Source: Nitrospirota bacterium (GTDB lineage: Bacteria; Nitrospirota; Leptospirillia; Leptospirillales; Leptospirillaceae). From it: a stretch of 37,543 nt of DNA. A program made the translations under genes and the position numbers. Shown here piece by piece: positions 34,745 to 37,543 of this stretch (its first letter is position 1; each line of letters begins with the position of its first letter). The stretch covers positions 1-37,543 of the forward strand of contig JAKAYF010000013.1 in assembly GCA_021816465.1 (NCBI GenBank), written 5' to 3'. Below the pieces are notes generated by a model, which saw only the letters and a program-made list of their open reading frames with translations, did not search any database and was not told where the DNA came from.

Positions 34745-36472
34745 TCAGTCGGGCCCCTTGCTTTCCCCCGAAATCACGGTCCTGTTCCGGCCCTCTTTCT
34801 TCGCCCGATAAAGGGCCTCGTCCGCCTCTTTCATCACACCTGACAGGACACTGTCGGGGGCAAACTCCGAAATCCCTGCAGATATGCTGACATTGAGCCC
34901 CCGGGATGGTCCCCAGTTCTCAGAAACCTTTTTCCGGATCTTCTCCGCCACAACAAAAGCCTGCTCCCGCCCGCCATGAACAATCAGCGCAAACTCTTCC
35001 CCACCGATCCTTGCTGGCATGTCTTCCCCCTGCCGCATGCTTCCCCGGATAATATCCGACACCTCCTTCAGAACCTTGTCTCCTGTTTCATGGCCATGGG
35101 CGTCATTGATTTCCTTGAAGTGGTCGATGTCCAGCATGATAAAGCTATGGGTCTTCCCGTGCCGTCTCATGAGAGAAGAAACCCTCTGAAAGAAATCCTC
35201 CAGATATCTCCTGTTGTACAAGCCGGTCAGAGGATCGAGGATCGCCTCATTCCTGTGACGGTGCAAAAGCCTGAGCTTTGAAAGCGCCATGCCGACATGA
35301 GCCGCAACATCCCGGAGAAAGGTTCGATCTTCGTCCGTCCAGTCGATCCGGGTACCCGATCTCAAGGTAATGGTTCCCAGCGTTTCTTCCGCAGACTGAA
35401 TGGGAGAGCACAAATAGGTCCGGCCTTCCTGGGCATGCTCGCATTGATGACAGCGGACCAGACCGCTCCAGTCCTGATCGCTGATCAGACCTCCTTTCCT
35501 GATCGCCCAGCATTCGTCGATCCCTTCCTCTTTCCGGAGATTGAAATGGATTTCGACCGTCTCGTCTTCGAACACCGTCATCAGTGCCTGACGGGAGACA
35601 TCGATGACATCCTGTTCCCTGGACATAAATCCTGATGCCTGGATAATCATCGACAACAGTTCGTTATGCTGGAGCTTTCGACGGGTTTGTCCCAACGCCA
35701 TGACAAGCGAGTCCTTCATCATGTTGATCGACTCGACCAGATCCCTCATCTCCGCATCTTTGGGTATCGATTCCGGTGAAAAAGAGTCGGGAGAATCGCC
35801 CTTTGCCACAGACAAAGCCCAGACCGCGAGACGTTCCAGCGGTTTCAGGACCGCATTCTCCATCAGCTCCTTCAGGAGACCCTCAAGCCACAAAAACAAA
35901 ACAATCTCGGAAACAAAAAACAGGAGATTAAAGAAAATCACCAGAATGATCCGGTGGATGGTCCGGCGCTCACTGGCCCTCAGGTGGCGAAGGAACGGAT
36001 GGATATCGTTGTGCACGGCCTCAAAAAGGAGGTTCGTCAGAGAAAGAGTCAGCTGTTGCCGCTCTCCGGGTGTAATCCCGGGAACGAACAGGGCATTTCC
36101 AAGCGCCTGCACCTGGAAAAGCATTCCCCTGACCCGTTCGGCAAACAAACGGGAACGACTTTCCGCCAGGATGCCCGAACCAGCAGGCATTCTGGCAAGA
36201 GTCTCCTGAAGGATGGTGTCAAACCGGATTTTCTGGGAGGGACTTTGTGTTTCAAGGTAGACAATCAGTGGCTCCTGAAGGGAGAGGAAGCTGTTTTCAA
36301 TCTTTTCAGTGGTCCGGATCCTGTCTTCTTCTTGCAGAATGCTCTGCCCTGTGAAAACGTACAAAAGGACAAAGCCTGCCCAGACGATAAAAAAAGCCCC
36401 CGCCCCCAGACGAAGTCGCCTGAGAAGCGAGTGGAGCCGATCACGAATGGTCTGGTCTCTCATCGATTCCAT
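34745..36472 (-). CDS. Membrane-bound diguanylate cyclase (GGEEF) with sensor and GAF-like domains
   Basis: A 575-residue enzyme making c-di-GMP from two GTP. TM1 is about 22-43, a periplasmic sensor loop about 44-170, TM2 about 172-196, a HAMP-like linker to about 260, a GAF-like domain about 285-405 (with a C-x-x-C pair near 341-344), and the catalytic GGDEF domain about 412-570. DPLTGLYNRRYL begins it and GGEEF is at 490-494. The inhibitory I-site normally RxxD five residues ahead reads QGED here, so product inhibition is probably lost. ATG at 36472 overlaps the upstream HD-GYP stop (TGATG); a GTG one codon earlier is the alternative. Confidence 0.92.
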   Translation of the reverse strand: MESMRDQTIRDRLHSLLRRLRLGAGAFFIVWAGFVLLYVFTGQSILQEEDRIRTTEKIENSFLSLQEPLIVYLETQSPSQKIRFDTILQETLARMPAGSGILAESRSRLFAERVRGMLFQVQALGNALFVPGITPGERQQLTLSLTNLLFEAVHNDIHPFLRHLRASERRTIHRIILVIFFNLLFFVSEIVLFLWLEGLLKELMENAVLKPLERLAVWALSVAKGDSPDSFSPESIPKDAEMRDLVESINMMKDSLVMALGQTRRKLQHNELLSMIIQASGFMSREQDVIDVSRQALMTVFEDETVEIHFNLRKEEGIDECWAIRKGGLISDQDWSGLVRCHQCEHAQEGRTYLCSPIQSAEETLGTITLRSGTRIDWTDEDRTFLRDVAAHVGMALSKLRLLHRHRNEAILDPLTGLYNRRYLEDFFQRVSSLMRRHGKTHSFIMLDIDHFKEINDAHGHETGDKVLKEVSDIIRGSMRQGEDMPARIGGEEFALIVHGGREQAFVVAEKIRKKVSENWGPSRGLNVSISAGISEFAPDSVLSGVMKEADEALYRAKKEGRNRTVISGESKGPD

Positions 36473-37209
36473 CACGTCCCTTTCGACTTTTGTCCCAAAG
36501 GAATCAGGAGCGAAAGATACTCCGCCGGATCAAATGAGTCCTGAATAAAACGCGTATGGCTATGAACAGATTCCAGCTGATCGAAAAAGGACTTCGGAAT
36601 CTCGAGGAATCCGTCAACAACATCCGGATCAAAAAGGACTCCAGCGTTTTGACGGATCTCGTCGATCGCCTCATCATGGGACTTCGGAACATTGTAAGAC
36701 CTGCGAGAAACCATCGCATCGTAACTGTCAACCACTCCAAAAACCCGGGACTCAATCAGGATATCCGAAGACTTGAGGCCATGAGGATATCCTGACCCGT
36801 TCCATCTCTCGTGGTGCTGACAGACGACATCCCCGGCAAAGGAAAGCGTCGGTATCCTTGAAAGAATGGCGCGGCCATGGAGTGGATGTTCTTTCATCGC
36901 TGTCCATTCAGCCGCATCGAGCGGACCCGACTTGTTGAGAAGTTCCTGCGGCACCCTGATTTTCCCGACATCGTGGAGAAGCGCTCCCGCCCTGAGTGTC
37001 ATCAGACGGTTCGCTGGCAGGGAAATTCTCTTGCCGACCTCAATCGCCAGCAGACTGACCCGGTAAGAATGGAACCGGCGCTCATATGTCCACCGGTCGA
37101 GCTGGTCCATCATCTCCTCAAGAAAAACCAACGTTGTCCGATGGAGGATTTCAAAAAGAGATGTACCCGGATCGCCTGAAATCGGTCCGCTCCCCTCGAC
37201 CAGATTCAT
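36472..37209 (-). CDS. HD-GYP domain c-di-GMP phosphodiesterase
   Basis: A 245-residue cytoplasmic protein that should hydrolyse c-di-GMP. The HD pair is H79/D80 in ALLHDVGKIRVP, followed by KEHPLHGRAIL and the family-defining HHERWNGSGYP (132-142) with GYP intact. No sensor domain is present apart from a short N-terminus of about 20 residues. ATG at 37209 has AGGAG five bases upstream; a TTG at 37227 is rejected. Its stop overlaps the start of the diguanylate cyclase gene, so the making and breaking enzymes are coupled. The tnpB element end lies about 200 bases upstream. Confidence 0.92.
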   Translation of the reverse strand: MNLVEGSGPISGDPGTSLFEILHRTTLVFLEEMMDQLDRWTYERRFHSYRVSLLAIEVGKRISLPANRLMTLRAGALLHDVGKIRVPQELLNKSGPLDAAEWTAMKEHPLHGRAILSRIPTLSFAGDVVCQHHERWNGSGYPHGLKSSDILIESRVFGVVDSYDAMVSRRSYNVPKSHDEAIDEIRQNAGVLFDPDVVDGFLEIPKSFFDQLESVHSHTRFIQDSFDPAEYLSLLIPLGQKSKGT

Positions 37210-37254
37210 GTCTTCTCCTGCACGCAATTGATGATGGATCGATCCTCATACTAA

Positions 37255-37271
37255 GGACGGCTCTGCCGTCC
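37255..37271. repeat. Perfect inverted repeat upstream of the HD-GYP gene
   Basis: GGACGGC and GCCGTCC, seven bases each, around a three-base loop. It lies 46 bases upstream of the HD-GYP start codon and 11 bases from the next hairpin. It could be an RNA structure in the leader or part of a mobile-element end. Confidence 0.5.
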
Positions 37272-37282
37272 GCGCTATCCTT

Positions 37283-37302
37283 CCCCGCCCTGAAGGACGA
37301 GG
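37283..37302 (-). repeat. Hairpin resembling an IS605-type subterminal structure
   Basis: On the minus strand CCTCGTCC-TTCA-GGGCGGGG forms eight pairs (three of them G-T) around TTCA, followed by AAGGATAGCG. Hairpins of this look are familiar near the ends of IS200/IS605-type elements, but it lies about 100 bases beyond the tnpB right end at 37406, so it may be a relic of another copy. Confidence 0.4.
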
Positions 37303-37352
37303 TTTGCCGCGCATCTGATCAAGAATACATGACCTTGTCCCCCGAAAGAAAG

Positions 37353-37367
37353 TACATTTAAAATGTA
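37353..37367. repeat. AT-rich palindrome
   Basis: TACATTT-A-AAATGTA, seven bases each side of a central base. On the plus strand it is followed by a T-rich tract. It lies between the tnpB right end and the HD-GYP gene and could be a weak terminator or a regulator site. Confidence 0.35.
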
Positions 37368-37405
37368 TTTTTTATGTTTTTTCAAAAGCTCCGGGCATCG
37401 TCGCA

Positions 37406-37543
37406 GTGACTGCTCCCGCCACTAAACCATGAAATGGTTGTCGTGGGGGCTTCTCGGGGCTAACCCGGAGACTCCAGCCCGAGTCTCAAAATATTCAGGG
37501 AGGCGTTGTGGTCCCGATCCTTTTCCATTCCACAGCACGGACA
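37406..37543 (-). mobile_element. IS200/IS605-family element, right end (partial)
   Basis: The element runs off the window to the right. On the minus strand the last part of tnpB is followed by a strong imperfect hairpin (37415-37450: CCCCCAC pairs with the GTGGCGGG arm, and inside AACCAT-TTC-ATGGTT), then AGCAGTCAC ending at 37406. A hairpin followed by such a GTCAC-type end is typical of right ends of these elements, which have no inverted-repeat ends or target duplication. The left end, tnpA if any, and the upper part of tnpB are outside the window. The exact right boundary is inferred. Confidence 0.75.
37460..37543 (-). CDS. tnpB: TnpB RNA-guided nuclease, C-terminal fragment
   Basis: Only the last 27 codons and the TAG stop lie in the window. 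They encode the end of the zinc finger (CPCCG) and the last RuvC segment with its aspartate (KDRDHNASLNIL), a signature of TnpB/OrfB of IS200/IS605 elements. There is no stop or frameshift in this part. Whether the full gene is intact cannot be judged here. The frame ends just before the right-end hairpin. Confidence 0.85.
   Translation of the reverse strand, partial: CPCCGMEKDRDHNASLNILRLGLESPG

What the first reader, a model, noticed from the sequence alone, without database searches (positions are those of the whole stretch)
37386..37543. TnpB right end with a readable candidate guide, just upstream of c-di-GMP genes
The tnpB end, its terminal hairpin and the GTCAC-type boundary are all visible, so the flanking guide of a possible RNA-guided nuclease can be read: about 20 bases on the minus strand from 37405. 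The insertion sits about 200 bases upstream of the HD-GYP/GGEEF genes and on the same strand, so readthrough from the element may feed c-di-GMP genes. Sequence shows the tnpB end and hairpin; the guide role is family knowledge; any effect on expression is inference.
Basis: partly seen in the sequence, partly recalled or inferred. Interest (0 to 1): 0.6.

Follow-up and report, generated by a model that had tools for sequence, protein, structure and literature searches.

The report
Ordinary TnpB transposon end with guide
The contig runs into the right end of a common, many-copy "jumping gene" whose TnpB protein belongs to an RNA-guided DNA-cutting family; the end and its 20-base candidate guide are real and correctly read, but this is a known kind of element and nothing shows that it controls the c-di-GMP genes next to it.

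Summary
The last 138 bases of the window (37406-37543, minus strand) are the right end of a tnpB element: the last 27 TnpB codons, a stop, a covarying terminal hairpin, and the boundary ...GAGCAGTCAC at 37405/37406. Nine copies in the same genome and eleven in relatives stop at that position, each followed by different DNA, so the outside 16-20 bases (37405 down to 37386) are the correct candidate guide. Relatives carry full-length TnpB of the same family, under purifying selection (dN/dS about 0.1) and aligning end to end with ISDra2 TnpB, a proven RNA-guided nuclease. Complete copies have tnpB alone (IS1341-type). Two things were missed. A same-genus genome has the same HD-GYP/GGDEF locus without the insertion. 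Also, a roughly 75-bp left-end remnant of a second IS605-type family (target TTGAT, as in ISDra2) lies between the tnpB end and the HD-GYP gene, and is absent from that relative too. Whether this copy's tnpB is intact cannot be told, because the contig ends inside it. Feeding of c-di-GMP genes by readthrough is possible but unsupported. This is a new member of a known kind, of low interest.

The parts
37463..37543 (-). tnpB, last 27 codons (zinc-ribbon half and DRD motif of RuvC-III); runs off the contig
37460..37462 (-). tnpB stop codon TAG
37406..37459 (-). right end of the element after tnpB, inferred 3' part of the omegaRNA scaffold, ending GAGCAGTCAC
   Evidence: boundary shared by 20 copies
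37415..37449 (-). terminal hairpin of the right end
37386..37405 (-). flank next to the right end: candidate guide TGCGACGATGCCCGGAGCTT (the first 16 nt, 37405-37390, by the ISDra2 rule)
   Evidence: position; role inferred from PMC8612924
37322..37386 (.). AT-rich block conserved (82%) in the insertion-free same-genus genome G002; presumed regulatory DNA
37245..37322 (-). left-end remnant of a second, ISDra2-like IS605 element, with its TTGAT target at 37318-37322
36472..37227 (-). HD-GYP domain protein gene (neighbour)
34745..36475 (-). GGDEF (GGEEF) diguanylate cyclase gene with HAMP and GAF (neighbour)

Best explanation
This is the right end of a tnpB-only (IS1341-like) IS200/IS605-superfamily element in a bacterium that is probably a Leptospirillum relative. 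SHOWN: the end, its boundary, its hairpin, its multicopy nature, and the locus without it in a same-genus genome. INFERRED from the proven ISDra2 and AmaTnpB systems: the tnpB mRNA, read past the right end, is processed to an omegaRNA whose 3' guide is the flanking TGCGACGATGCCCGGAGC. TnpB would use it with a TTTA(T/A)C-type TAM to cut the empty donor site left after excision, so that repair restores the element. The TAM is read from the left-end flanks of other copies. Any effect on the neighbouring c-di-GMP genes is incidental.
For: Copies and boundary. TnpB C-terminus. Full-length relatives in G012 and G005 with D/E/D motifs, 366 aa, dN/dS 0.08-0.14, full-length alignment to ISDra2 TnpB 8bf8, E=4e-62. 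Left end lies directly before tnpB with no tnpA between. TTTATC/TTTAAC flank at left ends. Locus without the insertion in G002 and no copies of the family there. Guide mechanism and the proposed copy-restoring role: PMC8612924; mRNA processing: PMC10278001.
Against: The contig ends 81 bp into tnpB, so this copy may be truncated. Several other copies in the genome are remnants or carry stops, and no intact tnpB of this family is assembled here. The exact TAM at this insertion is unknown because its left end is missing. The right-end scaffold matches no Rfam family and no RNA data exist.
Confidence: 0.88

Rival explanations
1. The window copy is a dead remnant: only a 3' piece of the element is left, with no working TnpB and no guide function of its own.
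For: Contigs C15 and C50 hold copies that keep only the 3' part, others carry stops or internal deletions; no full-length copy of this family is assembled in the genome.
Against: The 27 codons present are intact and 96% identical to a full-length relative; the contig end itself suggests a repeat that the assembler could not cross, which fits a longer copy. An RNA from this end could also be used by TnpB from another copy.
Confidence: 0.4
2. The insertion changes expression of the c-di-GMP genes: transcription from the element runs through the right end into HD-GYP and GGDEF.
For: Same strand, 178-196 bp away, no terminator-like site found between; guide formation itself needs transcription past the right end.
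Against: A 65-bp block conserved in the insertion-free relative lies between and may carry the native promoter; the second element's left end folds strongly; no expression data.
Confidence: 0.15
3. A domesticated, nuclease-dead TnpB (TldR-like) uses this guide to repress a target.
For: TnpB-derived RNA-guided repressors exist (PMC13418256).
Against: Many dispersed copies, a different flank at each, intact DRD motif here and intact D/E/D in relatives; the guide has no second perfect site.
Confidence: 0.01

Closest known systems
ISDra2 TnpB (Deinococcus radiodurans, IS200/IS605; PDB 8bf8, 8ex9, 8exa)
   Same: Full-length TnpB alignment of the relative G012 protein (E=4e-62), RuvC D/E/D motifs, guide position outside a hairpin-bearing right end
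   Different: Complete copies here have no tnpA next to tnpB; the left-end flank is TTTA(T/A)C, not TTGAT; the right end finishes in GCAGTCAC
IS1341-type (tnpB-only) members of IS200/IS605
   Same: Left end, tnpB alone, right end; dispersed copies; Y1 tnpA genes elsewhere in the genome could act in trans
   Different: No difference found; not compared with named ISfinder entries, which were not available
ISDra2-like left end with TTGAT target (second element, 37245-37322)
   Same: TTGAT next to the end, hairpins, and in other copies an adjacent Y1 tnpA or tnpB
   Different: Only the left end remains in the window

Membership tests
IS200/IS605 TnpB element | TnpB with RuvC-like and zinc-ribbon (TNB) domains | tested here: met
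   Window: C-terminal part of the TNB domain, PF07282 E=3.7e-5, just under its curated cut-off because only 27 aa are present; the full-length relative has PF12323, PF01385 and PF07282 above cut-off
IS200/IS605 TnpB element | Subterminal hairpin and sharp right boundary | tested here: met
   Boundary in 20 copies, covarying hairpin; absence of a target duplication could not be tested for this copy
IS200/IS605 TnpB element | Intact catalytic triad in this copy | tested here: inconclusive
   Only the last motif (DRD) lies inside the window; the contig ends at 37543
IS200/IS605 TnpB element | omegaRNA with 3' guide from the flank | not testable with these tools
   Needs RNA data; position follows PMC8612924 and PMC10278001
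IS200/IS605 TnpB element | Conserved TAM/target next to the left end | tested here: inconclusive
   TTTAAC, TTTATC or a close variant next to left ends of seven copies in this genome and two in relatives; the left end of this copy is missing
IS1341-type (tnpB-only) | No tnpA inside the element | tested here: met
   In complete relatives (G012, G005) and at left ends in this genome, tnpB starts about 75-110 bp inside the left end with nothing between; not seen directly for this copy
TldR (nuclease-dead TnpB repressor) | Degenerate RuvC active site in a non-mobile locus with a fixed guide | tested here: not met
   DRD motif intact; many dispersed copies with a different flank at each

The most novel reading that the evidence does not exclude
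Two unrelated IS605-type insertions have rewired one c-di-GMP locus: the tnpB element supplies transcription from upstream, and the second element's left end forms a folded leader before the HD-GYP start.
Probability: 0.08. Interest if true: 0.4.

Novelty: new member of a known kind. Interest (0 to 1): 0.17.

Why it matters
It gives a compact TnpB family (366 aa in complete relatives) with a well-defined right end, natural guides at many sites and a likely TTTA(T/A)C TAM, probably in acid-loving iron oxidisers. It also shows that two elements landed independently upstream of one c-di-GMP gene pair. Neither point changes what is known about TnpB.

Tried and rejected
Rfam search of the region: nothing. 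Guide as an exact match in viral contigs: none. Guide elsewhere in the genome: only hits with 2-3 mismatches, without a TTTA-type TAM directly before them. Partner contig via thyX, the upstream neighbour in G002: thyX is not in this 80%-complete genome. Partner via synteny with contig C7: the match is a PstS-family protein and its tnpB fragment points the wrong way, so rejected. Named relatives via the HD-GYP protein in genome contigs: only distant bacteria. Reading the exact TAM from the G002 locus: the 20 bases at the junction are too diverged to align. Reading it from the insertion in a PstS-family gene on C57: paralogues too diverged. TldR-like repressor: rejected on copy number, intact DRD and variable flanks.

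Full report
Observation. The window is the whole of contig C71 of a 104-contig, about 80%-complete genome, so it ends inside the element. On the minus strand the last 81 bases read CPCCGMEKDRDHNASLNILRLGLESPG and then TAG (37460-37462). This is the end of a TnpB zinc-ribbon/RuvC-III region (PF07282, E=3.7e-5 on 18 residues). Between the stop and 37406 lies a stem-loop (37415-37449), then GAGCAGTCAC.

Boundary. A search of the own genome with 37300-37543 gave eleven further matches; most of those that reach the right end start at the same place, 37404-37406. Nine copies, this one included, show the end GAGCAGTCAC (one has GAGCCGTCAC) followed by different DNA. Eleven copies in relatives end the same way. 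A shared end with unrelated outsides at 20 places is not chance and fixes the boundary at 37405/37406.

Hairpin. The copies have two hairpin forms. In the short form, 93% of cells pair against 48-63% for slid controls, with two pairs changed on both sides. In the long form, 95% pair against 31-51%, again with two pairs changed on both sides. The numbers of sequences are small (7 and 8), but the direction is clear. The window's 50-nt end folds better than 199 of 200 shuffles; the whole 138 nt does not fold unusually well (z -0.6).

The element. Full-length TnpB of this family exists in relatives G012 and G005 (366 aa, no stops). Five sequences compared pairwise give dN/dS 0.08-0.14, so the protein is kept by selection as the family spreads. 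The G012 protein aligns over residues 3-364 with ISDra2 TnpB (8bf8), E=4e-62, and keeps GIDVG, FVEDI and DRD. In complete copies the left end carries a hairpin and tnpB follows with no tnpA between: tnpB-only, IS1341-like. Left ends in this genome are preceded by TTTAAC, TTTATC or close variants, and those in G012 and G005 by TTTATC. That is the likely TAM/target. Y1 tnpA genes are present elsewhere in the genome and could act in trans; this is inference.

Guide. In ISDra2 the reRNA covers the tnpB 3' end and the right end and finishes with about 16 nt of flank (PMC8612924); in general the scaffold/guide border is the right end (PMC10278001). It has no second perfect site in the genome and none in viral contigs, as expected if its target is the element's own empty site.

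Empty locus and second element. A same-genus complete genome, G002 (2,559,538 bp, one contig), has the GGDEF and HD-GYP genes at 75% DNA identity and then a 65-bp block matching window 37322-37386 at 82%. It has neither the tnpB end nor the stretch of about 37245-37321. That missing stretch is a dispersed repeat. In other copies it is preceded by TTGAT and followed either by a Y1 tnpA in reverse or directly by a tnpB start (the flanking gene starts were read by eye). It is therefore the left end of a second, ISDra2-like family, here as a remnant. It lies between the conserved block and the HD-GYP start and folds strongly (z -3.3). In G002 the upstream neighbour is a divergent thyX-like gene (identified by reading its protein, no profile search done on it); thyX was not found in this genome, so the contig beyond 37543 could not be identified. 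The size of G002 matches Leptospirillum ferrooxidans C2-3 from my memory, and a paper gives 2.5 Mb for that strain; the genus Leptospirillum is therefore an inference.

Effect on c-di-GMP genes. The distance is 178-196 bp on the same strand. No terminator-like site was found between them, so readthrough is possible. But a block conserved in the insertion-free relative lies in between, and no expression data exist. The claim stays open and unsupported.

Verdict. A correctly read right end of a common kind of element, with a correct candidate guide; intactness of this copy unknown; new member of a known kind; low interest.

Noticed in passing
window 37245-37322 (-): Left-end remnant of a second IS605-type family next to TTGAT, in the presumed leader of the HD-GYP gene; many copies in the family, absent at this locus in G002.
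   Followed up: yes
G000:C26:1-203 (L020) and G000:C27:15654-15993 (L019): tnpB copies with an internal deletion joining about codon 102 to the last 25 or so codons at the same point; either a non-autonomous derivative or one locus split between two contig ends.
   Followed up: partly
G000:C57:42543 (L026): A copy of the same element lies inside a PstS-family gene.
   Followed up: partly
window 34745-36475 (-): The diguanylate cyclase has GGEEF but QGED rather than RxxD at the usual inhibitory-site position, so it may lack product inhibition; read by eye.
   Followed up: no
G005:C38 (L102) and G005:C30 (L103): Two right ends with a shortened scaffold (53 instead of 64 nt) but the same GAGCAGTCAC boundary.
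   Followed up: no
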